DNA of 64,000 nt from the NCBI GenBank assembly GCA_030429345.1, contig JAUIFJ010000001.1, positions 186,001-250,000 of the forward strand, written 5' to 3'. The stretch is from a bacterium. GTDB lineage: Bacteria > CAIWAD01. The notes below the pieces were generated by a model that ran no database searches, was not told the origin of the DNA, and was given only the letters and a program-made list of their open reading frames with translations. Below, piece after piece: positions 845 to 63,835 of the stretch (position 1 is the stretch's first letter; each line of letters begins with the position of its first letter). The translations under genes and the position numbers were made by a program.

Positions 845-2515
845 TTGTATAATCCCAACAATCCGCTGATCGTCCAGTCCGACCGGACGATCTTCCTGGA
901 AACCGCCAATCCGCAGTTCGAGGACGCCCGCGACGAGCTGGCGCGCTTCGCCGAGCTCGAGAAGAGTCCGGAACACCTCCACACCTACCGCCTCTCCCCC
1001 CTGAGCCTGTGGAACGCCGCCTCCAGCGGCATGGCCAGTGGGGACATCATCAACATCCTGAACCGCTTCTCGAAGTACATGGTGCCGACCAACGTGGTGG
1101 CCGACATCCGCGATTATGTGTCACGCTACGGCCGCGTCAAGCTCGACCGCCTGGACGAGCACGCGCTGGTGCTCATGTGTGACAACCCGACGCTGATGAT
1201 CGAGCTCTCGCGCCACAAGACCGTCGCCCCCCTGCTTTCGCAGCAGATCGACGAGACGCGCTTCCGCGTCCAGCCCGGCAATCGCGGACACCTGAAGCAG
1301 GCGCTGATCAAGATCGGCTTCCCCGTCGAGGACCTGGCCGGGTATACGGACGGCGACCGGCTGGAGATCCCGCTGAGACAGCGAACGCTGGGCGGCATGA
1401 ACTTCGGCCTGCGCAGCTACCAGCAGGATGCCGTCGATGTATACTGGGCCGGGGGCGAGAGCCGCGGCGGCAGCGGCGTGCTGGTGCTGCCCTGCGGGGC
1501 CGGCAAGACCGTGATCGGCATCGGGGCCATGGCGAAGGTCGGCATGCACACGCTCGTCTTGACGACCAATGTGACCGCCCTGCGGCAGTGGCGCAGCGAG
1601 ATCCTGGACAAGACGGAACTCACGGAGAACGACATTGCCGAGTACAGCGGCGAGTCCAAGGAGATCGCGCCGGTTACCATCGCCACCTACCAGATCATCA
1701 CCTACCGCAAGAACAAGAAGAGCCCATTCCTGCACTTCGACATCTTCAACAAGCACAACTGGGGCCTGATCATCTACGACGAGGTGCATCTGCTGCCGGC
1801 GCCGATCTTCCGCGCGGTCGCCGAGATCCAGAGCCGGCGCCGCCTGGGGCTGACGGCGACCCTAGTGCGCGAGGACAACAAGGAAGACGATGTCTTCAGC
1901 CTGATCGGTCCCAAGAAGATCGACGTGCCCTGGAAGGAGCTCGAGCGCCAGGGCTGGATCGCCACCGCCAACTGCGTGGAGTACAGGCTTTCCATGGACG
2001 CCGACCTGCGGCTGGAGTACGCCCTGGCCGAGACGCGTCGCAAGTATACGGTGGCCAGCACCAACCCGGCCAAGATGGAGGTGATCGACCACCTGCTGGA
2101 GAAGCACCCCAACGACCAGGTGCTGATTATCGGGCAGTTCATCGACCAGCTGAAAACCATCGCCAAGGTGCTCGACGCCCCGCTGATCACCGGCAGTGTG
2201 CGCAACAACCTGCGCGACGAACTCTACAACCGCTTCCGCAGCGGCGAACTGCGCGTGCTCGTCGTCAGCAAGGTGGCCAATTTCGCCATCGACCTGCCGG
2301 AAGCCAGCGTGGCGATCCAGGTCTCGGGCACCTTCGGCAGCCGCCAGGAGGAGGCCCAGCGCCTGGGCCGCGTGCTGCGGCCGAAGAGCGGCAGCAACCA
2401 GGCCTGGTTCTACACCCTTGTCACACGGGACACCATCGACCAGGAATTCGCCATGAACCGCCAGCTCTTCCTCACCGAGCAGGGCTACCGCTACGAGATC
2501 CGCAGTTTCGAATAG
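845..2515 (+). CDS. XPB/Rad25-family DNA repair helicase
   Basis: 556 residues, close to the length of actinobacterial XPB. The N-terminus (PLIVQSDRTIFLE, then a HTYRLSPLSLWNA segment) matches the bacterial XPB N-terminal damage-recognition region as I know it from Mycobacterium XPB. Two RecA-like helicase domains follow: Walker A PCGAGKT with Lys221, the DEVH box at Asp312, a GLTAT motif III, and a C-terminal motif VI containing QRLGRVLRPK. Family role: ATP-dependent 3'-5' DNA unwinding in repair. The TTG start at 845 is chosen because homology begins almost at once; no better ATG/GTG is in frame. A TATAAT string lies inside codons 2-3. No Bax1-type partner nuclease is adjacent. Confidence 0.92.
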   Translation: MYNPNNPLIVQSDRTIFLETANPQFEDARDELARFAELEKSPEHLHTYRLSPLSLWNAASSGMASGDIINILNRFSKYMVPTNVVADIRDYVSRYGRVKLDRLDEHALVLMCDNPTLMIELSRHKTVAPLLSQQIDETRFRVQPGNRGHLKQALIKIGFPVEDLAGYTDGDRLEIPLRQRTLGGMNFGLRSYQQDAVDVYWAGGESRGGSGVLVLPCGAGKTVIGIGAMAKVGMHTLVLTTNVTALRQWRSEILDKTELTENDIAEYSGESKEIAPVTIATYQIITYRKNKKSPFLHFDIFNKHNWGLIIYDEVHLLPAPIFRAVAEIQSRRRLGLTATLVREDNKEDDVFSLIGPKKIDVPWKELERQGWIATANCVEYRLSMDADLRLEYALAETRRKYTVASTNPAKMEVIDHLLEKHPNDQVLIIGQFIDQLKTIAKVLDAPLITGSVRNNLRDELYNRFRSGELRVLVVSKVANFAIDLPEASVAIQVSGTFGSRQEEAQRLGRVLRPKSGSNQAWFYTLVTRDTIDQEFAMNRQLFLTEQGYRYEIRSFE

Positions 2516-2596
2516 CCCGGCGGATTCCTCTTGCGGCGCAGCCCCCTCTCTGCCTTGTTGCCTTCCGCACACGGACCGAACTCCGGAAGGAACACC

Positions 2597-3583
2597 ATGG
2601 ATCGCCGCGACTCCCTGAAGAAACTGGGCCTGCTGGGACTGGGCGCCGTCCTGCCCGCCGGAACGGGCGCCTTCACTCTGTCGAAAGAGCGCCGGACGGC
2701 GCGTGACTGCTTCCTCTCCCCGCAGACCACGGAAGGCCCCTTCTATTTCGACCCGGGCTTCCTGCGCCAGGATATCCGCACCGACAGCGAGTCCGGGGAT
2801 TTCCATGACGGCCTGCCGCTTTCGCTGACGATCTCTGTAGTCAACAGCGACTGCGAGCCGATTCCGGGTATCCTGGTCGACATCTGGCACTGTGATACGG
2901 ACGGCCTGTACTCGGGCTATGTGCAGCCCGAGGGCAACACGACCGGACAGAACTTCATGCGCGGGACGCAGGTTACCGACGCGCAGGGTCGAGTGCAGTT
3001 TATCACCAGCTATCCGGGCTGGTACCCCGGTCGTGCGACGCACATCCACTTCAAGGCCCGGCTCGACGCCTTCAGCTATGTTACCAGCCAGTTCGCATTC
3101 GACGAGGCGATCAATCAGGCCGTATACGAGACGCCGCTGTACTCGGAGCGGGGACAGAACACGACCTCCAACGCATCCGACGGGGTCTTCGGCGGAGTGG
3201 ACATCGAACAGTTGATGGCCGTATGCGAAGCGAACACGGACACCGGCGGCTACGACGGGAGCTTCACCATCGGCATCGATGCCCAGACCTCGGTGCGGGA
3301 GCCGGAGCCTGCTCCGGACCAGTTCTTCCTGGCCCCCAATCACCCCAATCCCTTCAATCCGCAGACCACATTGCGCTTTCATTTACCGGTGGCCGAACGC
3401 GCCGAAATCCGCGTTTACGATGCCCTGGGGCGGGAAGTGGCCGTACCCCTGCGGGGGAGCCGCCTGGAGGCGGGGTGGCACCAGGTTGACTTCGATGGCT
3501 CCAGTCTGGCCAGCGGGTACTACATCGCCCGCTTCACTGCCGGAAGCCATGCCCAGGCCCGGCAGATGCTGCTGGTCAAGTGA
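2597..3583 (+). CDS. secreted intradiol dioxygenase-like protein with T9SS sorting domain
   Basis: 328 residues from an ATG with a strong GGAAGGA ribosome site 5 nt upstream; the longer frame upstream lacks support. The N-terminus has a twin-arginine-like RRDSLKK followed by a hydrophobic segment (Tat signal, inferred). Residues about 38-230 match the intradiol ring-cleavage dioxygenase fold (protocatechuate 3,4-dioxygenase beta type). Likely Fe(III) ligands are Tyr105 or Tyr108, Tyr143 in GWYPGR, and His149/His151 in THIHFK. Residues about 235-328 are a sorting domain with NHPNPFNPQTT and a terminal LLVK. Family members oxidise catechols, although many secreted homologues are uncharacterised. 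Whether it is enzymatically active is not shown by the sequence. Confidence 0.85.
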   Translation: MDRRDSLKKLGLLGLGAVLPAGTGAFTLSKERRTARDCFLSPQTTEGPFYFDPGFLRQDIRTDSESGDFHDGLPLSLTISVVNSDCEPIPGILVDIWHCDTDGLYSGYVQPEGNTTGQNFMRGTQVTDAQGRVQFITSYPGWYPGRATHIHFKARLDAFSYVTSQFAFDEAINQAVYETPLYSERGQNTTSNASDGVFGGVDIEQLMAVCEANTDTGGYDGSFTIGIDAQTSVREPEPAPDQFFLAPNHPNPFNPQTTLRFHLPVAERAEIRVYDALGREVAVPLRGSRLEAGWHQVDFDGSSLASGYYIARFTAGSHAQARQMLLVK

Positions 3584-3814: not shown

Positions 3815-6800
3815 GTGTTTCCCTCCTTCAGACGAATCCAGGACCGCGCCCCCCTGCTGGCCGGCCTGTTTCTCATTGCGAGTACCGGTCTTCCGGCCCA
3901 GGCGCTCGAGGTGGCGCAGAACAGCCGTCTTCAAATCGAATCCGGCGTCGATGGACTTCGAATCCGCTCGGCGCGGGAGGTGTCCAGGGCCAGCAGCGAG
4001 CAGATTCTCGTGGACTGCCGGCTTTCGCGGCTGGTGGCGACCGACCTGCAGGGGCGGCCGGTCAAGACCACCGAACGCGAGCTCTGGCGCAAGCGCAACC
4101 TGCGGCGTGTCGCGCTGGAAGTTCCCGAGGCCCTTTTGCAGGAGGGGCTGCAGCTCAGGGAAGAAGGTCCTCCCGTGCAGCCGCGCGAGTCCGCCAGCCT
4201 GCGGCAGGCGCCGCGCCCGGAAGTGCAGAACTATCGCCTGCGCATTTCCGTAGACAGCGAAGGCCTCTACCGCCTGGGCTACACGGACCTGTTGGCCGTC
4301 GGGGACGGTCTTACGCCCGCCGGACTGGGAGACCCGCGCCGGCTCAAGCTCTTCCTGGGAAACGAGGAGGTCCCGCTGCGGATCACGGGGGAAAGCGACG
4401 GCAGCTGGGACCCCGGCGACCAGCTCGAGTTCTGGGCCGGGAATCCTGGACCCGCCGGCGAAGGCTTCGGCCCCGATACGCGCCGTGATCCATGGTCGGA
4501 CGAATGGTGCTACTTCCTGGCCGCCGCCGCCACGCCCGGATTACGCATGGGCCAGGAGAGCGCGGCGATCGTCGAGACGGACCCCGGCCAGTACCGGAAT
4601 CCGCGCGCCTTCTACTCCAGCGCCCATTTCGAGGAAGACCTCTTCCACAGTCAGCTCGGCTTCGTGCTCGGCGAAGAAAGGCCGGATCATTTCTTCTGGG
4701 ACATCTCGATCCGCGCGGGCCAGCTGCGCAGTTTTCCTTTTGTCACACCGGGAATCGATACCCGCTCGACGGATCCGGTGCGCCTGACCCTCTGCCTTCG
4801 CGGCGGCTCCGCCCCTTCTTCCGGGGATCCCTACAGCCAGCGTGTCCAGGCCTATGTCAACGGCAGTTCGGCCCAGGCGCTGGATATCGGCGCCGACGGC
4901 AGCTGGCAGAACCAGGAACTCGTGATCCAGTCCTTCGGCGAAGAGAGCTTTCCGGACCACCAGGGCTTCCAGACGGAGAACACGCTGACGATCGTCGGCC
5001 TGGAACTGCCTCCGGCGAACGCCTTCAGCAACGCCATGCTCAACTGGTTCGACGTGGAGTACAAACGCAGCTACCGCGCCGACGAGGAACAGCTGGTCTT
5101 TTCCGTCGATCCGGAGTATACGGGGCAGCTCGTCGACCTGACGATCAGCGGCTTCGGCGGGGAGGACATCCAGCTCTACAAGATCGGCCAGAGCCGCATG
5201 TTCGGCGGCCTGGTGCGCCCGGAAAGCGGAGGCTTCCGCCTGCGCCTGCAGGACGTGCCGGCGAGCGGCGACCGCTACATTGCCTTGCGTGAGACAGCGA
5301 AAAAGACCCCCCTGCGCGTCGAGGCCTGGGAGCCACGGGACCTGCGCGCGCCGGGTGACGAGGGTCTGCTGGTGATCGTGGCCGACAGCCTGCTGCGCGA
5401 GAACGGCGCCGCATTGCTGGACCCCCTGCAGCCGCTCTGGCAGCGGGATGCCGGCGGCGCGCGCATTCTGAGCGACTACTGGATCTATGACCAGTTCGGC
5501 GACGGCCGGGTCAACCCTTCGGCGATCCGCGCCTACCTGAGACACGTGGAAAGCGCCTGGCCGACGCCGCCCGGAAAGATCCTGCTGCTGGGGGACGGCG
5601 CACTCGAGCAGCACGCGATTCGCCGCGAGTCGCTGCCCGTTCTGCCCATTCAGTTCGAGCAGGTCTATCGCTGGGGGGCGGCGGCCAACGACACGTGGTA
5701 TGTGTCCGGCAGCGGCGGCGTGGAAAGCGCGGCGCTGATCTCCCGCTGGCCGGTCAAGAGCCCGGAAGAGCTGCAGAACATGGTCGCCAAGCGCCTGGCC
5801 TACGACCAGGCTCCGGCAGGCGAATGGATGAACAGCACCTATTTCATCTCTGCGAGCCGCGTCAGCGAGGGCGACATTTTCATCGAACAGCGTGAAAGCC
5901 TGGTCAACCAGAACATTCCCGAAGACATCTTCGTGAGACGGCTGGATGTCGGCCTGCAGGACAGCCCCTACGACGGCCTGACGACCGAGTTGATCCGCCA
6001 GTTCGATCGCGGCGCCGTGCTCTGCAACTATTTCGGGCATGGCGGCGGGGCCGTGTGGTACGACTTCAACCTGCTGCGCAGCGACGATGTCTCACGTTTC
6101 AACAACGACCAGGTCCTGCCGCTGATCACCAACACGACCTGCCACATAGCCTCCATCGAACTGGAGGACGCGCTGGGCAAGGCCCTGCTCAACGCCGGGC
6201 CGATGGGCGCGATCGGCGTGCTCGGCGCCTCGGGGCTGAGCTTCTTCTATGCCAGCATGGAGCTGATCCGCCTGTACTACGATTTCCAGCTCGCCAATCC
6301 CGAACTGCCGGTGGCAGGGGCCCTGCGCCTGGCGGAGGACCAGTTCCGCGTCGACCGGCTTTCCTTCAGCAACGATTCGCTGACCCTCGACATTGCCGAC
6401 ACGGTGATCCGCCTGACACAGTTCCTCGGCGACCCGAGCCAGCGCCTGAGGATTGCCAGAAGCGGAGCGCAGGTAACTCCGCCCTCGGCCGAAACACAGG
6501 CCGGCGCGAGCCTGTCCCTGCAGGGGCAGAGCAGCCTGGCCGATGCACAAGGGCGGCTGGAATTCTACTCCTCGTTGTCTCACCCCGTGGTCGAGGGGGG
6601 CGATTTCATTGACGGGATCCAGGGCTACGCCTTCCAGACCGACGCGGCGGGCAACTGGTCGCTGGAGGCGGAAGCGCCCTCGACCCTGTATCCGCTCGGG
6701 CTCTGGTCGACGGCGCGTGTGCTCGTCTACGACGATGAGCAGGCCGAGCGCGGCTCGTCCACCCTTTTCTATGGCGACAGCCTGCAGACCGGCTGGATGA

Positions 6801-8395
6801 GCGACGCGGTGCTGGTGCCCGAGTTTCCCCAGGCGGGCGAAGCCATCGAGCTGTGGATCACGGCCGCTGCACCGGAGGGCGTGGACAGCCTGTCCGCCGC
6901 CATTCGGGCGTATACGGCGGACGGCGATTCGCTGGACCTGGACCGCCACTTTCTGCAGCAGCAGGAAAACCCGGTGCGCTGGAAGGCAGAAACGACCATC
7001 GGCCCTTTCCCTGACGAAACGGACCTGCGGGTGATCTATACGCTCTACAGTGCCGGGGAAGCGCAGGCCTCCAACCCGACCTGGTTCCGCGTCGAAGAGC
7101 GCCGAGCGCAGATCGTCGGCGAGCTGCTGGGCCATGGGGAAAGCGAAGAGGGCCGCGTCGCCCTGCGCCTGCGCAATCGCGGACGGGGGGACCTGGCCAG
7201 CGTCGAGCTCAGGCTGCTGAATGCCGCTGGCGACTCGCTGGACAGCTGGTTCGCCGGTCCGCTCGCGGCAGGCGAGGCCCTGGACAGCAGCTTCCACCTG
7301 GGCGCGGGGCGCCTGGGCGAGACGGTCCGCCTGCAGGTGGATCCGGGCTTTGCCCAGAGCGACAGTGCCACCGCCGGCACCTTCGACCTGCAGCTCGCCG
7401 AGCTGGCCCTGGAGATTCCCTCCGGGCAGGGCGAGCGGCGGAGGGAAGTCCTGCCGGGTCTGGAGCTGCGTGTAACAGGCACGGAGGGAACACGCATCCG
7501 CCTGCGCGACCTTTCCGTCCATGCCCTGGAACGCCAGCCGGGGCTGCAGCTGCACACGGCCCTGCTTGCCGCGGATGTATACGAAGGCTCCTTGCAGGGC
7601 CTCGGCCTGGCTGTCGACACAAGCCGTGTGCCGACGGACCCCGGCGTGTGGACACGGCTGGATCGGGATCCGCTGCTGGCCCTGGCTCTTCCGCTGTCCT
7701 CCGTTCCCGTATACGAATCCGGCTTTCTTGTATACCCGGAGCAGCCGGCGGCGGGCATCGGCCTGGGGCGTCTCGCGGACAGCGAAAGCCCGGCGGCCGA
7801 ATTGAGCGTCGAGAACCAGGTCTTCCGCAGCGGCGACTATGTGCCCGACCGGCCGGCCTTCAGCTGGCTGCTGCTGGACGCCAACGGCATCGACTCGCGC
7901 AGCCTCGCGCTGAGCCTCGATGGCGCGCCCGTGGACAGCAGCGCCTTCAGCCTGGAGCCGGTGGGCCAGGGCAACAACCTGCTGCTGCGTTTCGCCCCCG
8001 AGCTGGAACAGGACGGCGAGGAACGCAACCTGGCCCTGTCCTTCAGCGACGCCGCCGGGAATCCCGCTTCCGAGGACGTGTCCTTCACCGCCAGCGATCG
8101 CTTCGGCCTGCAATACCTGGGCGCCTACCCCACGCCCTTCAAGAACGACACGCGCTTCGTCTACAACCTGAGCGGCGTCGCCGACCGGGTCGAGGTGCGC
8201 ATCTACACCGTCTCCGGCCGGAAGATCCGCACCCTGCTCCGCGAAGGACCGGTGATCAACTACGACGAGATCTACTGGGACGGCCGCGATGAAGGCGGCG
8301 CCGTGATCGCCAACGGGGTCTACTTCTACCTCTTCAAGGCCACCGGCGGCCGCGGGGAGATCACGCGAAGAGGGAAACTGGCGAAGCTGAAGTAA
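3815..8395 (+). CDS. porU: PorU-like C25 (gingipain-family) cysteine peptidase of the type IX system
   Basis: 1,526 residues from a GTG start followed by a signal peptide (cleavage near residue 31). The C25 catalytic core lies around residues 520-850: His742 in NYFGHGGG and Cys776 in NTTCHIAS give the gingipain-type His/Cys dyad. Long beta-rich regions flank it, and a sorting domain occupies about residues 1440-1526 (VRIYTVSGRKIRTLL, ending KLAKLK). PorU is the T9SS sortase that removes the C-terminal signal from cargo and attaches it at the cell surface. The assignment as PorU rather than a secreted gingipain-like protease rests on length, the sorting domain, and a PorV-like gene 4.3 kb downstream on the same strand. 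Peptidase family is firm; sortase role is inferred. Confidence 0.82.
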   Translation: MFPSFRRIQDRAPLLAGLFLIASTGLPAQALEVAQNSRLQIESGVDGLRIRSAREVSRASSEQILVDCRLSRLVATDLQGRPVKTTERELWRKRNLRRVALEVPEALLQEGLQLREEGPPVQPRESASLRQAPRPEVQNYRLRISVDSEGLYRLGYTDLLAVGDGLTPAGLGDPRRLKLFLGNEEVPLRITGESDGSWDPGDQLEFWAGNPGPAGEGFGPDTRRDPWSDEWCYFLAAAATPGLRMGQESAAIVETDPGQYRNPRAFYSSAHFEEDLFHSQLGFVLGEERPDHFFWDISIRAGQLRSFPFVTPGIDTRSTDPVRLTLCLRGGSAPSSGDPYSQRVQAYVNGSSAQALDIGADGSWQNQELVIQSFGEESFPDHQGFQTENTLTIVGLELPPANAFSNAMLNWFDVEYKRSYRADEEQLVFSVDPEYTGQLVDLTISGFGGEDIQLYKIGQSRMFGGLVRPESGGFRLRLQDVPASGDRYIALRETAKKTPLRVEAWEPRDLRAPGDEGLLVIVADSLLRENGAALLDPLQPLWQRDAGGARILSDYWIYDQFGDGRVNPSAIRAYLRHVESAWPTPPGKILLLGDGALEQHAIRRESLPVLPIQFEQVYRWGAAANDTWYVSGSGGVESAALISRWPVKSPEELQNMVAKRLAYDQAPAGEWMNSTYFISASRVSEGDIFIEQRESLVNQNIPEDIFVRRLDVGLQDSPYDGLTTELIRQFDRGAVLCNYFGHGGGAVWYDFNLLRSDDVSRFNNDQVLPLITNTTCHIASIELEDALGKALLNAGPMGAIGVLGASGLSFFYASMELIRLYYDFQLANPELPVAGALRLAEDQFRVDRLSFSNDSLTLDIADTVIRLTQFLGDPSQRLRIARSGAQVTPPSAETQAGASLSLQGQSSLADAQGRLEFYSSLSHPVVEGGDFIDGIQGYAFQTDAAGNWSLEAEAPSTLYPLGLWSTARVLVYDDEQAERGSSTLFYGDSLQTGWMSDAVLVPEFPQAGEAIELWITAAAPEGVDSLSAAIRAYTADGDSLDLDRHFLQQQENPVRWKAETTIGPFPDETDLRVIYTLYSAGEAQASNPTWFRVEERRAQIVGELLGHGESEEGRVALRLRNRGRGDLASVELRLLNAAGDSLDSWFAGPLAAGEALDSSFHLGAGRLGETVRLQVDPGFAQSDSATAGTFDLQLAELALEIPSGQGERRREVLPGLELRVTGTEGTRIRLRDLSVHALERQPGLQLHTALLAADVYEGSLQGLGLAVDTSRVPTDPGVWTRLDRDPLLALALPLSSVPVYESGFLVYPEQPAAGIGLGRLADSESPAAELSVENQVFRSGDYVPDRPAFSWLLLDANGIDSRSLALSLDGAPVDSSAFSLEPVGQGNNLLLRFAPELEQDGEERNLALSFSDAAGNPASEDVSFTASDRFGLQYLGAYPTPFKNDTRFVYNLSGVADRVEVRIYTVSGRKIRTLLREGPVINYDEIYWDGRDEGGAVIANGVYFYLFKATGGRGEITRRGKLAKLK

Positions 8396-9437: not shown

Positions 9438-11888
9438 TCACTTCAACAGCAACACCTTCCGGCATTCCCGCACTTCGCCCGCCTCCAGCTCGACGATGTA
9501 TACACCGCTGGCCAATCCGCCACCATGGAAGCGGAACTCATGCCGCCCGGCGGGTAGTTGCTGGTCGACAAGTAGCTGCACCAGTTGTCCCTGCAGGTTG
9601 TATACGCGCAGCGCCGCATGCGCCGGACGGGAAAGGACCAGGGGAAGAATTGTCTGCGGGTTGAAGGGATTGGGGTAGGGCGGCAGCAGGGAAATGCCGG
9701 AGGGCAATACCTGGCCTTCGGTCTTCGGCCACGGAAGGGAAACCCAGTTCGTGTCCGTCACTGCAGCGCGCGGGCCGCCGAAGTAGCCGATGTCGTTCCG
9801 CAGCAGTCCCTGGGCGGGCCAGGCCGCCAGTTCCGGGTTGTCCGTGTCCGGGGGATCGTTGTAGACCTCGTCCGGATCACCCGCATCGATGCAGGGTGAG
9901 GCGGGCGAAAGGTAGGGCGCTCCCAGCTCTTCGTCGAAGAGGGGGTCCGTGCCCTGTATATTCCCTTCGCCCTCGAGGGCAATGTCCGTGTAGTTGTAGC
10001 TGAAGACTTGCCACTCAGGGAATGGGAAGTAGGGGCTGTTGAAGTATTCATATTGGTTGTTCCATGCGATGCTATTTTTTAGCCCCCTTGCAAGGCTGGT
10101 CAATACGGCTAGGCTACAGCCCTCGATGACGCAGTTCACCGGTGTATTTCCCAGTTCGGAACTGTAGTGAAGAGCTCTCTGCATTGCCCAGCCGTCGTCG
10201 GGAGCGCGAAAGTTGTCCTGTTCACGAACTCCGCGAATGTAAATATTACTTACAACATCTTCGGGATTGGCGTACAGATTGAAGACACGAACGCCCATGC
10301 GACGGACATCTGTCAGATGCAAATTGTATACATGATTTAGCGTGGCCCTGCTTGTGTAGTACATCCCTCCATCATCAATGCCTTCCATTGTGATGTCGTG
10401 TACGGATACCCAGTCGGGAAAGAGGGAGTCGTCGCAGTCCAGGAAGAAGTCGCAGCCCACGGACTGGTTGTCGCCGGGGCGCTCCGGCACATGGTTGGGT
10501 TGGCGGTTGTTTCTGAAGATCAAATGGTCTACTTCTATGAACTGTGCGGGCATGTTCAGCGGGACACTCACGTGCAGTGAGCGGCCCCAGTTTGGGTTGG
10601 CAAGAGCGTCTGCGGGTGTGTAGACATCGTGATCCACAAGCAGGTTGTCCTCGAATACACAGTTGCGCACGCGGGCCGTGTCTCCCGGCAGGGAGAAGTT
10701 TGCCCTGGCAAGCGGGCCATCGGCGGAATACAACTCATTATTTGTTCCGGCGAAGACATGCATAGTATTGTTGCTGAAATCGCAACCTTCAAAAGAAATG
10801 TTATTCGCCTTGACTGCGGCGGGTCGACAGTTTGCTACACCTGCGCGTACTGTATCACCGATCACATTGTTTCGAAAGGTCAGGTCGCGAACTACGGGGT
10901 AGGGGTGTTCCCCGGGTTCATCGGGGTCGTAGTCCAGGTAGAGCAGTCGGTACTCGTTCGTTGTAGGAGCGATCCCACTGTGCCGCGTAGAGTTTGTAAT
11001 GGACAGTTTGCCTACTTCCAGGCGCTCTGTTGCCCTCAGGTCGATTCCAGCGTTTCCGCTGCCAAGCACGTGAAGGGAGTCAAGAAATATTGAATCTGCG
11101 ACGGTTGTTGCGGCGATTGCCTGAATACCTACAGAGGCCGCACCCGACGCCCCAACATCCATAAACTCCACATGTCCATCTGCAAGAACACTCATTCCTG
11201 CGCCATTCGCCTGATTAAAGTGGATGCTTCTTGCGGTGAGGGTATCCGACAAAATCACGTTAATGCCAGTTTCATAGCCCCATGAGGATGCGCGGTAGTC
11301 GATGTTCCGCAGTCGTACCGATCCCTTAAGGAACAAGAGGAAGGAATGGTTTGCCTCTTCAAATGTACTACGCAGGTTGTTGTCATATAAGACAATATTA
11401 CTCATGGCCACCGTTACAGTATCTTCGTTCATAACACGGCAGATTGCACTGCCACGCCAGCCATTGACATGACCATGGAGCACGCAATTCAACACATCTG
11501 CACTGAAGGCCCCATCAAAGTGAATGCCACCCGCAACAAGTGATTCATTTGAGAAGCCGTTCCTGATCGTAAACCCATTGATGATTGCGGTAGCGGCTAC
11601 CGACGAGTTCAGTGTCAAGACTGTTCCTGCTCCTGCGCCGTCCAGGATTGTGTTTAGAATGTCGACAGAATCCCGGGTCTGATGATAGTGCGAAAGTAGG
11701 CTGAATGAGTGCGGTGGACTAGCCAAATGCTCGGTGAACACTCCTTGTGACACCAGAACCGTATCACCCTCCTGTGTTGCATCAAATGCATCTTGTATGC
11801 TGGGATATTGTGTCGGCACCAGAATTACAGAGGCGTTAACACCAAAGACGGCTAGAATGTGTAGAAATATGTAGTACATGTTGTCCAT
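9438..11888 (-). CDS. secreted right-handed beta-helix protein with T9SS sorting domain
   Basis: 816 residues from ATG 11888, or 813 from ATG 11879, which has a better-placed GGATGG. The first 20 residues are a short hydrophobic signal. A typical beta-helix entry motif follows (VPTQYPSIQDAFDATQEGDT) and then irregular parallel beta-helix repeats to about residue 690. A sorting domain (YPNPFNPQT, LRVYNLQGQLVQLL, terminal VLLLK) occupies about residues 735-816. Such folds are common in surface adhesins and polysaccharide-binding or -cleaving proteins; no catalytic site is recognisable. The passenger DNA (about 10,050-11,880) is visibly AT-richer, with codons such as ATA and CTA that are rare nearby, while the sorting-domain DNA has the local high GC. 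It lies antisense within the porU-porV interval. Confidence 0.82.
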   Translation of the reverse strand: MDNMYYIFLHILAVFGVNASVILVPTQYPSIQDAFDATQEGDTVLVSQGVFTEHLASPPHSFSLLSHYHQTRDSVDILNTILDGAGAGTVLTLNSSVAATAIINGFTIRNGFSNESLVAGGIHFDGAFSADVLNCVLHGHVNGWRGSAICRVMNEDTVTVAMSNIVLYDNNLRSTFEEANHSFLLFLKGSVRLRNIDYRASSWGYETGINVILSDTLTARSIHFNQANGAGMSVLADGHVEFMDVGASGAASVGIQAIAATTVADSIFLDSLHVLGSGNAGIDLRATERLEVGKLSITNSTRHSGIAPTTNEYRLLYLDYDPDEPGEHPYPVVRDLTFRNNVIGDTVRAGVANCRPAAVKANNISFEGCDFSNNTMHVFAGTNNELYSADGPLARANFSLPGDTARVRNCVFEDNLLVDHDVYTPADALANPNWGRSLHVSVPLNMPAQFIEVDHLIFRNNRQPNHVPERPGDNQSVGCDFFLDCDDSLFPDWVSVHDITMEGIDDGGMYYTSRATLNHVYNLHLTDVRRMGVRVFNLYANPEDVVSNIYIRGVREQDNFRAPDDGWAMQRALHYSSELGNTPVNCVIEGCSLAVLTSLARGLKNSIAWNNQYEYFNSPYFPFPEWQVFSYNYTDIALEGEGNIQGTDPLFDEELGAPYLSPASPCIDAGDPDEVYNDPPDTDNPELAAWPAQGLLRNDIGYFGGPRAAVTDTNWVSLPWPKTEGQVLPSGISLLPPYPNPFNPQTILPLVLSRPAHAALRVYNLQGQLVQLLVDQQLPAGRHEFRFHGGGLASGVYIVELEAGEVRECRKVLLLK

Positions 11889-11940: not shown

Positions 11941-12411
11941 CTACTTGAGCAGCATGACCTTGCGGATAGAGGCGGCTCCATCATTCGAGCTGGCATGCAC
12001 GAAATACATACCAGAACTGTAGGCCGCACCATCAAAACGCAGGGCGTGCCTGCCGGGTGCCAGAACACCATCGAAGAGGGTGGTTACCAGCCGCCCCTGC
12101 AGGTTAAAGACCTTGACCAGAGTATGATCCTCTTTAGGAATACTCAAGTCAATTGTCAGCACTGGATTGAAGGGGTTGAACAGGGTATTGCTGGCGTGTG
12201 TGTTCCACACCCGGGTCCCTTGCTCCTTCCATGCATTCATGTCCAAACCCCAATCCGCGAAGCGGAGGCTCAGGGTAGCTGCGGCCGCCAGCCCGCAGCG
12301 CACAGTTCTGCCGCCAGCCCTCGGCGCACACGACTGTTCCCCCATATCCCATACAAGCCGCCCTTGCATGTTGTATACACGCAATGCCAAACGAACCGCC
12401 CGGCTATTCAC
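11941..12411 (-). pseudogene. broken T9SS sorting-domain gene fragment interrupted by the repeat
   Basis: The 156-codon frame is a patchwork. Its first 25 codons read like a sorting-domain middle (LRVYNMQGRLVWDMGE). About 30 codons of translated repeat DNA follow (12248-12327), and then a second, nearly complete sorting domain (NTLFNPFNPVLTIDLSI, VKVFNLQGRLVTTL, SSGMYFVHA, terminal VMLLK). No passenger domain and no signal peptide are present. The best explanation is that the 3' end of a former surface-protein gene remains after loss of its passenger, with a second fragment and the repeat joined to it. It could still be transcribed, but a functional product is unlikely. Confidence 0.65.
12248..12327. 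repeat. 78-bp direct repeat, copy B
   Basis: Same orientation as the copy at 9340-9419, also starting CCCCAATCCGCGAAGCGGAG, with a few substitutions. It is embedded inside the broken sorting-domain frame. The two copies bracket the beta-helix gene and one sorting-domain fragment (about 2.9 kb). Confidence 0.85.
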
Positions 12412-12415
12412 GAAC

Positions 12416-12589
12416 CGATGTATACAATCTGAAGGGACAACGCATTCGCACTCTGCTGGTCAACGCCCTTCCTGCCGGCATGCACCAGGTCCGTTTCCAA
12501 GGTGGCGGATTGGCCAGCGGAGTGTGCCCGGTGAGGCTCAGCGCGCAGGGGCAGACCGCATCACGCAAATTGAAGCAGCTTCGCGAACC
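12416..12589 (+). pseudogene. orphan plus-strand T9SS sorting-domain remnant
   Basis: The frame reads DVYNLKGQRIRTLLVNALPA, then HQVRFQGGGLASG, then VRLSAQGQTASRKLK. This is the second half of a sorting domain, including the L-A-S-G turn. The expected Tyr after S-G-V is Cys, and the passenger, signal peptide and proper terminus are missing. It starts head-to-head with the minus-strand fragment ending at 12411. The two remnants therefore meet at a junction near 12,412, each beginning around a V-Y-N codon set that contains GTATAC (12373 and 12420). Confidence 0.6.
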
Positions 12590-16287: not shown

Positions 16288-16317
16288 TCGCCTCCTGAAC
16301 CCAGAACGAACCGTATA

Positions 16318-16340
16318 CGCCGCCTTCCGGGCGGCGTTTT
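16318..16340 (+). terminator. rho-independent terminator after the porV-SLBB-barrel run
   Basis: CGCCGCC and GGCGGCG form a 7-bp stem around TTCCG, followed directly by TTTT. It closes the run ending at 16287 and lies just before mutY. Confidence 0.8.
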
Positions 16341-49273: not shown

Positions 49274-50252
<979 letters not shown>

Positions 50253-55265: not shown

Positions 55266-57004
55266 AGTTTTCGTGTGTCATCCTGATGCTCGCGATCGCG
55301 CCGGCCATCCTGCCGGCCGGTGATACAGGCTATACCCGCGCAGTCGTGGAGCGGCTGGCCTCGCTGGAGCTCGAAGGCCGAGAGTTCGGCACGGCAGGCG
55401 GAGCCAGGGCAGTCCAGGTCGTGGACAGCCTCTTCGAAGCCGAAGGCCTGCTGCCTCCGCCCGGAGCCGAGTCGCGCCTGCAGGCCTTTCGCTCCCTGCT
55501 TTCCGGCGAGGATGGCTCCGGCAGCGTCTCCCTGACCATGCCGGGCCGGCGGGAGCTGGATCCCCTTGAAGAGGATCTGTGGTACATGCCGCCCTGGAGC
55601 GGGGCGGGAACCGCGGAAGGCTCCCTGCTGGCCGCCGGCTACGGCATGCTGACCGGGCCACCCGGCCGCTGGGACGACTATGCCCACCTGGACTGCCGGG
55701 ACCGCATCGTCGTGATCCAGGAAGGCCTTCCCCGCGGAGTGGATGCCGGCGAGGGCACAGACCTTGCCGAGCGTATACGGCTGGCCGAGCGCATGGGCGC
55801 GGCGGCGCTGGTGGTCTGCCGGGACCCCTTCAGCGACGCCCCCCTGGCCGACAACGTGGACCGGGGCCTGTTCCAGGAGCCGGTGTCGATCCCGGTGTTC
55901 TTCGTCCACTCCCAGGTGGCGGACTCGATCTTCAAGTCGAAGGGCTACACGGGGCGCAGCTGGATCTCCCGCATGAACCGGGCCCGCAAGAGCCTCAACC
56001 TGGACCTGCCCGATCGCGGCATGCGCATCGAGAGTCGTCCGTCTCACCAGATGGCCTCCGGCGCCAATGTGATCGGTTGGTGGCCGGGGAGGGGCGAGGG
56101 CGTGCTGGCGATGAGCGCCCACCTGGACCACCTGGGACTGGTGGATCACGAAGCGCCTCCCGCGGAAGGGAATGTATACCGGGGAGCCGACGACAACGCC
56201 TCCGGCGTGGCCGCCATGCTCGCCGCCCTGCGCCGCCTGAAGGAACGCTGGCCGGAGGGGCCGCCCCTGCGCGGCCTCCTGCTGCTTGCCTTTGACGGGG
56301 AGGAGAAAGGCCTGAAGGGAAGCCGGCATTTCGCCGCCACCACGGAGTGGGAAGACCTTCGTCTCACGCTGAACATGGACATGGTCGGCCGCCTGGACGG
56401 GCGTCCGCTGTCGGTCTTCGGAGCGGGGCGTGTTCCGGGACTGCAGGAGGTCCTGGAGCAGGCCGCGGGCGATCTTCCGCTTCGTTTCGCCGACCTGGAA
56501 GCCACTCCGAGCGACCACAGCTCCCTGGTCGAGGCAAGCATTCCGGCGGTCATGCTCTTCAGTGGCACGCACGAGCAGTACAACACGCCGGAGGATTCGC
56601 CGGAGCGCCTGGACTACGGCGGCCTGGCGCAGGTCGGGGATCTTCTGGTCAACAGTCTCGCCCGGATCGCGGAACAGGACCTGCATTTCGAGCTGGAGGG
56701 GGAGGCCCCGCGGCGTGCGACAGGGGCTCCGGTCAAGGTGGCCATGGGGATCACGCCGGGGTACGGAGGCGAAGGGGAGGGCATGGAAATCAGCCGCGTG
56801 GCGCCGGGCAGTCCTGCCGAGCAGGCCGGATTGCTGGCCGGGGATCGCCTGCTGGCGCTGGGCGAGCATCCGGTGACGAACATTTTCGACTACACCTTCG
56901 CCCTGCGCACCTTCACCGTTGGCGAACCCGTCGCGCTGCGTGTCCTGAGAGGCAGCAAGATGCTGGAGCTGCAGGTCGTCATCGGCGAACGCCGCAAACC
57001 CTGA
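55262..57004 (+). CDS. M28 metallopeptidase with PA and PDZ domains
   Basis: 580 residues, ATGA overlap with the SPOR gene. Signal peptide residues 1-19. A PA-like insert (about 100-240) precedes the M28 zinc peptidase core: His287 (SAHLDHLG), Asp310 (GADDNASG), Glu347/Glu348 (DGEEKGLKG), Asp373 (NMDMVGR) and His419 (SDHSSL). A PDZ domain (about 490-575) with EISRVAPGSPAEQAGLLAGD follows. Likely a periplasmic or surface aminopeptidase. Neighbour genes suggest an envelope role, but substrates are unknown. Confidence 0.9.
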   Translation: MKFSCVILMLAIAPAILPAGDTGYTRAVVERLASLELEGREFGTAGGARAVQVVDSLFEAEGLLPPPGAESRLQAFRSLLSGEDGSGSVSLTMPGRRELDPLEEDLWYMPPWSGAGTAEGSLLAAGYGMLTGPPGRWDDYAHLDCRDRIVVIQEGLPRGVDAGEGTDLAERIRLAERMGAAALVVCRDPFSDAPLADNVDRGLFQEPVSIPVFFVHSQVADSIFKSKGYTGRSWISRMNRARKSLNLDLPDRGMRIESRPSHQMASGANVIGWWPGRGEGVLAMSAHLDHLGLVDHEAPPAEGNVYRGADDNASGVAAMLAALRRLKERWPEGPPLRGLLLLAFDGEEKGLKGSRHFAATTEWEDLRLTLNMDMVGRLDGRPLSVFGAGRVPGLQEVLEQAAGDLPLRFADLEATPSDHSSLVEASIPAVMLFSGTHEQYNTPEDSPERLDYGGLAQVGDLLVNSLARIAEQDLHFELEGEAPRRATGAPVKVAMGITPGYGGEGEGMEISRVAPGSPAEQAGLLAGDRLLALGEHPVTNIFDYTFALRTFTVGEPVALRVLRGSKMLELQVVIGERRKP

Positions 57005-57015
57005 GCGAGCGGCGA

Positions 57016-58870: not shown

Positions 58871-61258
58871 ATGCGCAAAGCACTCATTCTTGGCTCCCTG
58901 GTCATGGGCGTCGCGACCGCCTTCGCGTCGATCCAGACCTCCAGCCACCAGGCGATTCGGAAGGGCGTCGATCCGTCGATCGTCCACCAGAAGAACATTT
59001 CGGCCCAGCCCAGCAATGCCGCCGCGGTCTACAAGGCCTCCCCGCGCACGGACACGGAAGTGGGTACTTCCCGCTATGACTACCAGCACAACGGTTCCCA
59101 CGGCAAGATGCTGGCCGTCAGCGCTGACGGTGTCGTGCACGGCGCTTTCATGGGCGGTACGGACATCAGCAGCGGCCGTCGTGTCGTCGCCTGGTGCCTC
59201 GGCGAAGGCGACGTGGTCACCGGACCCACGGAAGTGCTGGCCCAGCACACCGGGTATACGACTTCGGCCGTGACCAGCGAAGCCCCGACCAATGGCCTGG
59301 CCGGCAATTCCGGCGTGGTCGCCATGCACTCCAGCGTTCCCAGCAGCCAGTCCTGGGTTGCCGTCGACTTCGCCGGCTGCACCCTGGCCTTCAATGCCCT
59401 GACCCACAACCAGGTCGATGTGATCTGGCCCCATGTCGCCGTCGATAACGACGACCGCATGCACATCGTCTGCGGTGACGCCAGCACGGGCGAGTTGGAA
59501 GATGCTGTCTGGTACTCTTCTTCCGCCGACGGCCTGGGCTGGGAGCAGAGCTTCATCATGCTGACCGACAACAGCAACGTGCTCTCCATGACCTCCGCCG
59601 CCGCCCGCGGCGCCGGCGGTGCCGCCGTGTTCTTCATGCAGGACGCCCCCGCCGAGACGGACATCGGCGACTTGGCCCCGCAGTGGCATCACGATATTTT
59701 CTACTACCGCAGCGACGTCAACGACATCGAGGCCGAGATCAACGACGGCAACATGGTCAATGTCACACGCTACCGTCACCCGGATTCCAGCGCCCCGCTG
59801 TCCGACGGAGTCTTCGCCTATGCCGATGTCGACGCCATCTTCGACAGCCAGGTGGATCCCCAGCTGCACATCGCCTGGAGCGCTCCCCCGGTCTGGATGG
59901 ATTCGGCGTACTACATCGATCCGCTGGATGGCGAGACCTACCTGCTGGAAGGCGGCACCTTCGCCAACGTCAACGTGAGCTCCTCCCTGTGGCACTTCAA
60001 TGCCGATACGGGCGAGTACGGCCACATCGCGGGCTGGGCCACGGGCGTCGACGAGAACGACGACCGTCCGGATCCCGGTGTGTTCCGTGTCGCCAGCGAC
60101 CGCGTCCAGCTGGCCGTGGATCCTGACACCGGCTACCTCTACGCCATCTGGAACGAGTACTTCAGCGATGACACCCGCGACGCCTGGGACGACGGGCTGA
60201 ACATGCCCAACGGCGAGATCTTCGCCGCCTGCTCGGCCGACAACGGCCTGACCTGGGGTCCCCGCGTCAACCTGACCGACACCCAGACCCCCGGCTGCGA
60301 TGTCGGCGACTGCGCCAGCGAAACCTTTGCCAGCGTGGCCGAGGTGGCCTACGACGGCGAGCTCTTCATCAGCTACATGCTGGACCTGCACGCCGGCGCC
60401 TCGATCCGCAACGACGACGCCAACGACGGTTCCGAAGAGACGGTCAATCCCTGGATGGTGATGCGCGTCCCCGTGGAGAACATTCCTCCCCATGACGGCA
60501 CTCCCTGGGATGCCGACGGCCATGTGGGCCTGTCGACCTACGAGCGTACCTGGAGCTACACCGGCGGCCACGCCGACACGGCCCAGACCTTGGACCGCGT
60601 GCTGATCTTCAACGAGAGCAACAGCAGCGTATACCTGGACATGGTCGAGGTCTTCCACGATGCCATCGACGTCTTCGGCGAGTTCGGCGATCCGCTCTAC
60701 GCGCAGTTCGACGCCTTCAACGAGGGCGCCAACGACTACTTCGCCAATCCGGATGACTGGGACGGCCACGTTCCCGCCTGGAGCACGAACCTGATCCGCC
60801 TTAGCGTCGGCCACATCGGGCTGCCCGTCACCGAGCAGGCCTTCAAGCTGACCTTCAGCGACGGCACCGTGCGCTGGTACCGCTACGTATACGCCGAGAC
60901 CGAGGTCGTTCCCTTCGACATGGACAATCCCGGCAACTACAGCAGCTTCACGCTCTGGCAGCGTAACACGGACGTCAGCGAAGGCGCTGTGCCGGTGAGC
61001 TTCGAGCTGGGCCAGAACTTCCCCAATCCCTTCAACCCGACCACCGAGATCAGCTTCTCGCTGGAGAACAACGCCCAGGCCACCCTGAGCGTGTTCAACC
61101 TGACGGGCCAGAAGGTCGCCACGCTGGTCGACGGCAACCTCGCCGCCGGCAGCCACCAGGTGACCTTCGACGCCAGCGGGCTGTCGAGCGGTCTGTACTT
61201 CTACACCCTGAGCGCCAACGGCATCAGCGAGACCCGCAAGATGCTGCTCAGCAAGTAG
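58871..61258 (+). CDS. T9SS-exported surface protein, sialidase-like propeller (paralog 1)
   Basis: 795 residues. ATG with GAAGAGGTGAG upstream, signal peptide residues 1-19. The passenger has repeated blade-like segments (VVHGAFMGGTD, DDRMHIVCGD, PQLHIAWSAPP, TGYLYAIWNE) with S-A-D-x-G-x-x-W motifs like Asp-boxes of sialidase/BNR propellers. Sorting domain about residues 712-795 (LGQNFPNPFNPTTEI, LSVFNLTGQKVATLV, GLYFYTL, terminal MLLSK). A second paralog follows after 231 bp. A binding or structural role is likelier than enzyme activity, as no catalytic residues are evident. Confidence 0.82.
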   Translation: MRKALILGSLVMGVATAFASIQTSSHQAIRKGVDPSIVHQKNISAQPSNAAAVYKASPRTDTEVGTSRYDYQHNGSHGKMLAVSADGVVHGAFMGGTDISSGRRVVAWCLGEGDVVTGPTEVLAQHTGYTTSAVTSEAPTNGLAGNSGVVAMHSSVPSSQSWVAVDFAGCTLAFNALTHNQVDVIWPHVAVDNDDRMHIVCGDASTGELEDAVWYSSSADGLGWEQSFIMLTDNSNVLSMTSAAARGAGGAAVFFMQDAPAETDIGDLAPQWHHDIFYYRSDVNDIEAEINDGNMVNVTRYRHPDSSAPLSDGVFAYADVDAIFDSQVDPQLHIAWSAPPVWMDSAYYIDPLDGETYLLEGGTFANVNVSSSLWHFNADTGEYGHIAGWATGVDENDDRPDPGVFRVASDRVQLAVDPDTGYLYAIWNEYFSDDTRDAWDDGLNMPNGEIFAACSADNGLTWGPRVNLTDTQTPGCDVGDCASETFASVAEVAYDGELFISYMLDLHAGASIRNDDANDGSEETVNPWMVMRVPVENIPPHDGTPWDADGHVGLSTYERTWSYTGGHADTAQTLDRVLIFNESNSSVYLDMVEVFHDAIDVFGEFGDPLYAQFDAFNEGANDYFANPDDWDGHVPAWSTNLIRLSVGHIGLPVTEQAFKLTFSDGTVRWYRYVYAETEVVPFDMDNPGNYSSFTLWQRNTDVSEGAVPVSFELGQNFPNPFNPTTEISFSLENNAQATLSVFNLTGQKVATLVDGNLAAGSHQVTFDASGLSSGLYFYTLSANGISETRKMLLSK

Positions 61259-61290
61259 TCCCTACGACAGATTGCCAATCCGGCAATTCC

Positions 61291-61436: not shown

Positions 61437-61489
61437 ATGGCTAAGGGCAGAGTCTCTGCTTGTCGCTGTTTCAGTGGAGGGCCCAGCCC

Positions 61490-63835
61490 ATGTTGATGCC
61501 GCTCTGCCTGCTGCTTGCCAGCGCTCTGTGCGCCCAGGCCGAGTTCCGGGCCGTCCCGAAAGGGCCGGATGCCACAACGATCCACGGAATGCCCGAGGCA
61601 TCGAAGACCGAAGGGAATCCGGTTCCGCACAAGGTCGCGCCCCTGCGTGAGACACAGGAAGAGGTGGGATCCACCCGCTATGACCTGCAGCAACTCGGCT
61701 CGGTGGGCCAGATGATCGCCGTCGACGAGACGGGCATGGCGCACGGGTGCTACTCTGATCCTCCAGCACCCGGATATGATGATCTGAAGTACTTCTGCGT
61801 CGACCCGGAAGGGGTTGTCGCTAACGAGGGGGCAGTCGCGTTTCCTTACCCCGATTTCATCAATCTTGCCGTCTATGGACCCGGAGCATTGGATATGCCG
61901 ATCAATGGCGCGGTTTTTGGTTTCTACAACCGACTAGCCAACGAGTTGGCAGCCTGCTCGCTAGCTGTTATCCGTAGCATGGTGCCGGGTCCGTCCCACG
62001 ATCGATCCTTCTTGCGTCTTGCCGTGGACGCAGACGAAACCCTGCATATTGTATACATGAGATACTACCCTGATCCTGGACGAATTCTCTACTGGCGCAT
62101 TGCGAACGATTGGACGATCGAGGACTCGCCGGTTGAAATTGCCGATACCTGCAATGTCGTTTCCCATGCGGTCTGTGCTACACCTGATGGCGCATCCGTC
62201 GCGGCCCTGTTCATGCAGGATGCGTTGGCGGCGAATCCGGGAGAGCGCGCCGCGCGACAGTGGCATCACGACATTTTCTACTACAGGTCGGACAGCGGGT
62301 CGCTGGTGGATTTGATCGAGACGGAAGCCCCTGTCGCAGTCACGCGATACCGTCAGGAGGACAGCACGGCCCCACTCTCCGATGTCCTGTTCGCCTTCAC
62401 CGACCTGGACGCCACTTTTTCCTACGGGGAGGGCCCGGATCTGCATATCGCCTGGACCGCACCGATGGTTGTGGCAGATTCCGCCCTTTACCGGATACCA
62501 GGATCGCCGGTAGTCCATCTTGCCGGGGGTGGCCTGTTTCCCGTGACACACAAGCGTAGCAGCATCTGGCACTATTGCGACGGGAGCGGACAATTCTCGC
62601 ACCTCGCCGGCTGGGCGACGGGGACCGGGGAAGAGGATGCGGCTGCGGATCCGGGCATCTTGCGGACCTCCCATTGCCGCCCCCAGCTGGCGGTGGATCC
62701 GCAGAGCGGGTACCTGTACGCGATCTGGAACCAGTTTTCCAGCGATGACACACGCCTGCCCGGAGAAGACGGCCTTCGCATGCCCAACGGCGAGATCTAC
62801 GCCGCCTGCTCGGCGGATAGCGGGCTGACCTGGGGTCCCAGGATCAACCTGAGCAACACGCCGACACCCGATTGCGAGGTGGGAGACTGCGCCTCCGAAA
62901 TCGAGGTGTCCCTTGCTAAGCGGGTGCATGACGGCGAGCTGGTCATTAGCTATCTGCTGGACCTTCATGCCGGCTGCAGCCTGCGAAGCGACGAGCCGAA
63001 CGACGGATCCGAGGAGACCGTCAACCCGATCCTCGTGATGCGTGTTCCCGTGGGGGACATTCCGCCCCACGACGGGACGCCCTGGGATGCCGCGGGCCAT
63101 GTGGGACTGTCGAGCTACTCCCGCACCTGGAGCTATGTCGATGGCCACCCGGACACGATCCAGACCCTGGACCGGGTGCTGGCGGTCAACGAGAGCGACA
63201 CGCAAATCACCCTCGACCGGGTGGATGTGATCCACCATGTCACGGATGTTCTTGGATCGGAGGAGAGTGCGCTCTACGCCGATATCGAAGTATACGATCG
63301 CGAAGGGCAAAACTACCTGGAAGACATCGCCCTCTGGGACGGCCAGATTCACGCCTGGCGCGCGCAGCTCTTGCGGCTGAGCGTGGGCCACCGCGGCCTT
63401 CCATTCTACGAGCAGGCCTTCCGCCTGGTCTTCAGCAACGGGACGGAAAGGCTCTACCGCTACCTCTACGAAGGCACCGAGGTCCTGCCCCTGGATCACG
63501 CGCAGATCGATTCCTACGAGACGACCGTGCTCTGGGAACGCAGTGTCGGCATGGAAGAACCGCAACGACCGACAGTTTTCCATTTGGAGGCCTGCGCGCC
63601 GAATCCCTTCAATCCATCGACCCGGGTCGCCTTCACCCTGGAAGGGGCAGCCGAAGTGGATCTCTCCGTCTACAACCTGGCGGGACAGCATGTCGCCAGG
63701 CTGGGCAGCGGATCCTATGCCTCAGGCAGGCACCAGGTCGTCTTTGACGGCGAGGGGCTGGCCAGCGGGATCTACTTCGTATCCCTGCAGGTGGGAGGAC
63801 AGCGGGCCGTGCGCAAGGCGCTGCTCAGCAAGTAG
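61490..63835 (+). CDS. T9SS-exported surface protein, sialidase-like propeller (paralog 2)
   Basis: 781 residues from ATG 61490 with GTGGAGGG 8 nt upstream; the longer TTG frame is less likely. Signal peptide residues 1-16. Colinear with the upstream paralog: shared blocks WHHDIFYYRSD, SGYLYAIWNQ, SADSGLTWGPR, LDLHAG and PPHDGTPWDA, with sorting domain about residues 700-781 (NPFNPSTRVAF, LSVYNLAGQHVARL, terminal ALLSK). Residues about 85-240 are strongly diverged from the paralog and encoded by visibly less GC-rich DNA, suggesting replacement of several blades. Confidence 0.82.
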   Translation: MLMPLCLLLASALCAQAEFRAVPKGPDATTIHGMPEASKTEGNPVPHKVAPLRETQEEVGSTRYDLQQLGSVGQMIAVDETGMAHGCYSDPPAPGYDDLKYFCVDPEGVVANEGAVAFPYPDFINLAVYGPGALDMPINGAVFGFYNRLANELAACSLAVIRSMVPGPSHDRSFLRLAVDADETLHIVYMRYYPDPGRILYWRIANDWTIEDSPVEIADTCNVVSHAVCATPDGASVAALFMQDALAANPGERAARQWHHDIFYYRSDSGSLVDLIETEAPVAVTRYRQEDSTAPLSDVLFAFTDLDATFSYGEGPDLHIAWTAPMVVADSALYRIPGSPVVHLAGGGLFPVTHKRSSIWHYCDGSGQFSHLAGWATGTGEEDAAADPGILRTSHCRPQLAVDPQSGYLYAIWNQFSSDDTRLPGEDGLRMPNGEIYAACSADSGLTWGPRINLSNTPTPDCEVGDCASEIEVSLAKRVHDGELVISYLLDLHAGCSLRSDEPNDGSEETVNPILVMRVPVGDIPPHDGTPWDAAGHVGLSSYSRTWSYVDGHPDTIQTLDRVLAVNESDTQITLDRVDVIHHVTDVLGSEESALYADIEVYDREGQNYLEDIALWDGQIHAWRAQLLRLSVGHRGLPFYEQAFRLVFSNGTERLYRYLYEGTEVLPLDHAQIDSYETTVLWERSVGMEEPQRPTVFHLEACAPNPFNPSTRVAFTLEGAAEVDLSVYNLAGQHVARLGSGSYASGRHQVVFDGEGLASGIYFVSLQVGGQRAVRKALLSK

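What the first reader, a model, noticed from the sequence alone, without database searches (positions are those of the whole stretch)
1342..63295. GTATAC is a highly iterated palindrome across the window
By hand I count 52 GTATAC sites, spread through coding DNA of both strands and all functions (for example 1342, 5116, 7709, 7730, 19745, 29474, 33333, 48501, 52959, 60629). A base-composition estimate at about 65% GC gives roughly 6. It is kept in different reading frames (V-Y as GTA TAC, Y-T as xxG TAT ACx), so it uses codons otherwise rare here. That argues for selection or a mutational process at the DNA level, like HIP1 in cyanobacteria. Possible causes are a methyltransferase site, a chromosome-organisation signal, or a repair bias.
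Basis: seen in the sequence. Interest (0 to 1): 0.7.

Follow-up and report, generated by a model that had tools for sequence, protein, structure and literature searches.

The report
GTATAC spread through a bacterial genome
One uncultured bacterium carries about 1,800 copies of the short mirror-symmetric DNA word GTATAC, five times more than its proteins and codon usage allow and about 70 times more per megabase than its sister genus, so something acting on the DNA itself creates or keeps this word strongly enough to shift amino-acid pairs in its proteins.

Summary
The window has exactly 52 GTATAC sites; the genome has 1,793 against 128 for the equal-composition control CATATG. GTATAC has the highest observed/codon-shuffled ratio of all 4,096 hexamers, 814 against about 164 in coding DNA, about five-fold in repeat runs (95% interval 4.9-5.7). 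It is enriched in all three frames and is the top hexamer between genes. The other NTATAN words are avoided (0.09-0.55). The sister genus has 5-7 per Mb against 423. Val-Tyr and Tyr-Thr pairs are inflated (1.45, 1.47; control replicons 0.75-0.83), so the force reaches proteins. Sites are not simply converted GTGTAC, which is equally rare in the sister genus. Spacing is near random. This is the behaviour of a highly iterated palindrome (HIP). A methyltransferase-coupled origin is plausible but unproved: the one stand-alone candidate is family-wide and does not track the enrichment. A second word family (GTVTCAC, GTCACAC) is also enriched. This window is the dense end, twice the genome mean.

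The parts
1342..1347 (.). GTATAC site 1
1439..1444 (.). GTATAC site 2
2044..2049 (.). GTATAC site 3
3122..3127 (.). GTATAC site 4
5116..5121 (.). GTATAC site 5
6910..6915 (.). GTATAC site 6
7577..7582 (.). GTATAC site 7
7709..7714 (.). GTATAC site 8
7730..7735 (.). GTATAC site 9
9498..9503 (.). GTATAC site 10
9600..9605 (.). GTATAC site 11
10326..10331 (.). GTATAC site 12
12373..12378 (.). GTATAC site 13
12420..12425 (.). GTATAC site 14
16313..16318 (.). GTATAC site 15
19745..19750 (.). GTATAC site 16
19932..19937 (.). GTATAC site 17
20700..20705 (.). GTATAC site 18
21378..21383 (.). GTATAC site 19
22157..22162 (.). GTATAC site 20
23286..23291 (.). GTATAC site 21
23570..23575 (.). GTATAC site 22
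26810..26815 (.). GTATAC site 23
28994..28999 (.). GTATAC site 24
29474..29479 (.). GTATAC site 25
29597..29602 (.). GTATAC site 26
29813..29818 (.). GTATAC site 27
29961..29966 (.). GTATAC site 28
33333..33338 (.). GTATAC site 29
35321..35326 (.). GTATAC site 30
35834..35839 (.). GTATAC site 31
36062..36067 (.). GTATAC site 32
36357..36362 (.). GTATAC site 33
36637..36642 (.). GTATAC site 34
39662..39667 (.). GTATAC site 35
42747..42752 (.). GTATAC site 36
44002..44007 (.). GTATAC site 37
45782..45787 (.). GTATAC site 38
47829..47834 (.). GTATAC site 39
48501..48506 (.). GTATAC site 40
49131..49136 (.). GTATAC site 41
49314..49319 (.). GTATAC site 42
51901..51906 (.). GTATAC site 43
52959..52964 (.). 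GTATAC site 44
53413..53418 (.). GTATAC site 45
55773..55778 (.). GTATAC site 46
56174..56179 (.). GTATAC site 47
59254..59259 (.). GTATAC site 48
60629..60634 (.). GTATAC site 49
60887..60892 (.). GTATAC site 50
62051..62056 (.). GTATAC site 51
63290..63295 (.). GTATAC site 52

Best explanation
GTATAC is a highly iterated palindrome of this lineage: a 6-bp DNA site (weakly extended to YGTATACR) that a sequence-specific DNA-acting protein recognises, and that has been gained and kept across the genome after the split from the sister genus. Most likely (inferred, not shown) the protein is a DNA methyltransferase acting on GTATAC, and methylation-dependent repair biases the fate of mismatches so that changes toward the site survive and changes away from it are corrected, as Elhai proposed for HIPs in cyanobacteria. 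Shown here: DNA-level enrichment in all frames and between genes, lineage specificity, amino-acid-level consequences, near-random placement, a recognition unit not longer than about 8 bp. Inferred: methylation, the enzyme, and the repair bias. I put the HIP description near 0.85 and the methylation-coupled mechanism near 0.4; the confidence below is for the mechanism.
For: Highest of all hexamers against codon-preserving shuffles, about 5-fold, and top between genes, 127 against 17 under an order-1 model. All three frames: 6.9x, 12x, 3.3x. Sister genus 5-7 per Mb against 423, so gained since the split, or lost there. Symmetric recognition with information only in the core and at -1/+1, 0.28 bits and at most 0.023 bits beyond: the size of a type II methyltransferase site, too short for known DNA-uptake signals. 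Force strong enough to change proteins: V-Y 1.45 and Y-T 1.47 against 0.75-0.83 in two control replicons; lower density in the most conserved genes, 0.22 per kb against 0.44, only 9 sites. Similar enrichment appears sporadically in unrelated families, e.g. G043 1,037 against 77, G147 508 against 44, G260 793 against 110, like the alternate HIPs of cyanobacteria. All cyanobacterial genomes with such words had a putative cognate methyltransferase (PMC4390886). The genome has MutS and many methyltransferases.
Against: No methyltransferase was shown to recognise GTATAC. The single PF01555 enzyme is family-wide and does not track the trait. Genome-specific cytosine enzymes belong to apparent restriction systems or phage-like contigs. 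Elhai's model was framed for GmeC, which GTATAC does not contain. Density (0.42 per kb) is below his predicted set point of about 1 per kb. The second enriched family (GTVTCAC, GTCACAC) is not a palindrome and is not predicted by this model.
Confidence: 0.4

Rival explanations
1. Binding site of an abundant dimeric DNA-binding or chromosome-organising protein. The protein contacts two YGT half-sites (YGT-n-ACR) with 2 or 3 bp between them, and selection keeps thousands of sites.
For: Both enriched families share the outer arms and flanks, YGT-AT-ACR and YGT-N3-ACR; TGT-N3-ACA as a class is 2.3x. Sites occur in coding and non-coding DNA, all frames, both strands.
Against: Near-random spacing (CV 1.07) and only mild clustering (index of dispersion 1.25). 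Densities of the two families correlate weakly, r = 0.15. The second family is also abundant in G004, where GTATAC is not, so the two are at least partly independent.
Confidence: 0.2
2. DNA uptake signal or other molecular drive. The site is preferred during natural transformation or recombination and spreads without benefit, like Haemophilus USS or Neisseria DUS.
For: Near-random placement, amino-acid cost, lower density in conserved genes, difference between genera; ComEC-like, DprA and PilB-like matches present.
Against: No information beyond 8 bp, whereas known uptake signals are 9-12 bp and not palindromic (own knowledge). Those genes are common in bacteria.
Confidence: 0.15
3. Context-dependent mutation: one donor word, GTACAC/GTGTAC, mutates to GTATAC (for example by cytosine deamination).
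For: GTGTAC is 0.34 of its codon-shuffle expectation, and GTGTAC codon pairs for Val-Tyr are 69 against 504, close to the GTATAC excess.
Against: GTGTAC is just as rare in the sister genus, 36-72 per Mb against 84, where GTATAC is nearly absent. The first base is enriched too: G before TAY-ACN 40% against 18% elsewhere. Val-Tyr and Tyr-Thr themselves are inflated, which a synonymous conversion cannot do.
Confidence: 0.06
4. Ordinary codon-pair or amino-acid composition effect.
For: The window is rich in large secreted proteins, and V-Y and Y-T pairs are commoner in it than in the genome.
Against: Codon-preserving shuffles, three frames and intergenic DNA all rule it out.
Confidence: 0.02

Closest known systems
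HIP1 (GCGATCGC) and alternate HIPs GGCGCC, rCCGGy, GCsGC of cyanobacteria (Elhai 2015, PMC4390886)
   Same: Short palindrome grossly over-represented genome-wide; most over-represented word of the genome; sporadic, lineage-specific appearance of alternates.
   Different: AT core with no GC or GATC; genome shows no cyanobacterial trait that I saw and carries secretion-tail proteins; somewhat lower density (423 per Mb against 500-2,500); no methyltransferase that tracks it; a second non-palindromic word family beside it.
GTWWAC adenine methyltransferases of Ralstonia and Burkholderia (RSc1982; PMC11460718, PMC7364216)
   Same: Recognition includes GTATAC, so m6A enzymes acting on this word exist.
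   Different: In Ralstonia GMI1000 only 392 GTWWAC sites exist. Here GTATAC is up, but GTTAAC (0.02) and GTAAAC (0.28) are strongly avoided.
DNA uptake sequences (USS, DUS)
   Same: Dispersed, lineage-specific words inside genes.
   Different: Longer and asymmetric (own knowledge); here 6-8 bp and symmetric.

Membership tests
Highly iterated palindrome (HIP) | Palindromic word | tested here: met
   GTATAC is its own reverse complement; one weak flank preference, Y before and R after
Highly iterated palindrome (HIP) | Gross over-representation, top word of the genome | tested here: met
   Highest ratio of 4,096 hexamers, about 5x over codon shuffles
Highly iterated palindrome (HIP) | Dispersed through coding and non-coding DNA in all frames | tested here: met
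Highly iterated palindrome (HIP) | Frequency about 500-2,500 per Mb | tested here: inconclusive
   423 per Mb, just below the range given in PMC4390886
Highly iterated palindrome (HIP) | Cognate methyltransferase in the genome | tested here: inconclusive
   Several methyltransferases, none of known GTATAC specificity; the one PF01555 enzyme does not track the trait
HIP1 proper | Single-base variants concentrated at first and last positions | tested here: not met
   One-off words are rarest at the outer positions and commonest at positions 2-3
GTWWAC methyltransferase site | All four GTWWAC forms methylated | not testable with these tools
   No kinetic data
DNA uptake sequence | Conserved motif of 9 bp or more, often asymmetric | tested here: not met
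   No information beyond the -1/+1 flank
VSP-type repair product | Depletion of the deaminated or donor word accompanies gain of the site | tested here: not met
   GTGTAC is equally rare in the sister genus without gain; a Vsr gene exists but beside an Eco29kI-type restriction system

The most novel reading that the evidence does not exclude
A single previously unknown DNA-acting system in this lineage recognises YGT-n-ACR arms with 2 or 3 bp between them, and drives both GTATAC and the GTVTCAC/GTCACAC words to thousands of copies, overriding protein sequence without methylation being the cause.
Probability: 0.12. Interest if true: 0.85.

Novelty: new variant of a known kind. Interest (0 to 1): 0.62.

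Why it matters
Why short palindromes become highly iterated has been open since HIP1 was described. Here is a clean second case, apparently far from cyanobacteria, with a sister genus that lacks it about 70-fold. That allows direct tests of selection, drive or biased repair by aligning orthologs and reading population variants. The effect on amino-acid pairs suggests that a DNA-level process can measurably reshape a proteome, which affects codon-usage and selection analyses.

Tried and rejected
Maximal-order Markov null: rejected as circular. Chance or codon bias: rejected. Donor-word mutation: rejected. The C64 methyltransferase as cause: presence does not track the trait. C26 cytosine methyltransferase: sits with an Eco29kI-type nuclease and Vsr on a contig nearly free of GTATAC. 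The enriched genome G043 shares no methyltransferase close to those of G000 among the loci compared. Regular spacing or saturation: not seen. Strand bias of the 7-mers: none, 724 against 716. Naming the organism: the one genome-contig scan returned only a 50% match in Lactonifactor. Literature searches on GTATAC gave no report of its over-representation.
Full report
CHECK. The window holds exactly 52 GTATAC at the positions given; base composition predicts 6.8. A maximal-order Markov model predicts 49, but 52 of 67 TATA in the window are inside GTATAC, so that null contains the signal. In the genes called in the window 45 sites were seen against 6.5 in codon-preserving shuffles, 0 of 300 shuffles reaching it.

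GENOME. The window lies in contig C75 of a 4.24 Mb, 92-contig assembly, 98% complete. It has 1,793 GTATAC against 128 CATATG, the same bases read backwards. I took 2.25 Mb (53%) in stretches and called genes with a simple codon-usage caller (1,674 genes, 1.87 Mb). Against synonymous shuffles within each gene GTATAC is 814 against 164 (1,628 against 328 when both strands are counted), the highest ratio of all 4,096 hexamers (z = 48 on the first 1.2 Mb of genes); a repeat run gave 5.26, 95% interval 4.9-5.7 over genes. The expectation varies between about 155 and 170 in different shuffle sets. Enrichment holds in each frame: V-Y 443 against 64, x-I-x 47 against 3.9, Y-T 324 against 99. Between genes there are 127 against 17 (order 1) or 31 (order 2), again the top hexamer by the order-1 ratio. 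All nine other NTATAN words are avoided, 0.09-0.55, so GTATAC stands alone.

LINEAGE. Three genomes of the sister genus have 23, 16 and 21 sites in 3.0-3.6 Mb, 5-7 per Mb against 423. Among 386 genomes surveyed G000 has the highest GTATAC/CATATG ratio that I could see (14); G043 (13.5), G147 (11.5) and G260 (7.2), all from other families, also stand out. This is a crude screen, not corrected for codon usage.

STRENGTH AND ORIGIN. V-Y pairs are 1,457 against 1,002 expected from amino-acid composition (1.45), Y-T 1,022 against 697 (1.47); with the same caller S. meliloti pSymB gives 0.80 and 0.75, E. coli 0.79 and 0.83. Removing the GTATAC-coded pairs leaves 1,014 and 698, about the expected numbers, so many GTATAC pairs look added rather than recoded; this is inference, since ortholog alignments were not possible. 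GTGTAC, the synonymous neighbour one transition away, is rare here (0.34), but equally rare in the sister genus (36-72 per Mb against 84). Before TAY-ACN the preceding base is G in 40% of cases against 18% elsewhere, so position 1 was gained as well as position 4. A one-donor mutation is therefore unlikely. Genes at least 40% identical to control-replicon proteins hold 0.22 sites per kb against 0.44 in genes with no match, but this rests on 9 sites. Spacing is near exponential (CV 1.07) and 20-kb counts only mildly over-dispersed, 1.25. Flanks carry information only at -1/+1 (C 50%, T 30%), also between genes.

SECOND FAMILY. The same tests show enriched 7-mers GTCTCAC 6.4x, GTATCAC 5.0x, GTCACAC 4.6x, GTGTCAC 3.6x, in every frame with enough expected counts, both orientations, no replication-strand bias. 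They share YGT...ACR with GTATAC. GTVTCAC counts are also high in G004 (739 forward in 1.9 Mb) and moderate in G003, where GTATAC is not, so the two traits are at least partly separate.

METHYLTRANSFERASES. Genome-wide family searches found one PF01555 enzyme (C64), five distinct PF00145 enzymes, two phage-like PF02086 fusions and six PF02384 matches; an MmeI-like protein lies on C63 and a type ISP-like frame on C9 (by motif only). The C64 enzyme has no restriction gene next to it among the frames listed and has 54-59% orthologs in all three sister genomes, so presence alone does not explain the trait; a change of specificity or expression could. The C26 enzyme sits with Vsr and an Eco29kI-type nuclease, the C13 enzyme with a DUF4928 protein; three near-identical cytosine enzymes lie on contigs low in GTATAC that look like prophages. 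No enzyme is shown to act on GTATAC. MutS is present in this genome and in the seven others searched.

WHY THE WINDOW IS DENSE. The mean is 8.4 per 20 kb; 52 in 64 kb is about twice that. The window is rich in large secreted proteins with Por secretion tails, including a 5,047-aa Ig-repeat protein with 14 sites. My reading is that such proteins tolerate sites; this was not tested directly.

VERDICT. An ordinary composition effect is excluded. The pattern fits a highly iterated palindrome in the sense of Elhai (PMC4390886). Its mechanism here, methylation-coupled repair being the favourite, is inferred by analogy and remains open.

Noticed in passing
genome-wide; in the window 53 copies of GTCTCAC, GTATCAC, GTCACAC, GTGTCAC on either strand: Second DNA-level over-represented word family, 3.6-6.4x over codon shuffles in all frames, sharing YGT...ACR arms with GTATAC; also abundant in G004 of the same class.
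   Followed up: partly
genome-wide: GATC is 1.31x and GTGATC 1.85x over codon shuffles, while GTTAAC is nearly absent (0.02) and TTAA is 0.11.
   Followed up: no
window 18357-33497: 5,047-aa protein of repeated HYDIN/ASH-like Ig, CARDB and Big_9 domains with a Por secretion tail; 14 GTATAC sites.
   Followed up: partly
window 845-2512: XPB/ERCC3-type helicase, 556 aa.
   Followed up: no
window 3815-8392: Peptidase C25 (gingipain-type) protein with FlgD-like C-terminal domain.
   Followed up: no
L053, L054, L055 (contigs C57, C43, C26): Three phage-like contigs with near-identical cytosine methyltransferases and few GTATAC sites (4, 1 and 0).
   Followed up: partly
contigs C24 and C26 ends: The same Vsr plus Eco29kI-type restriction region appears on two contigs with identical or nearly identical scores, probably assembly redundancy.
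   Followed up: no
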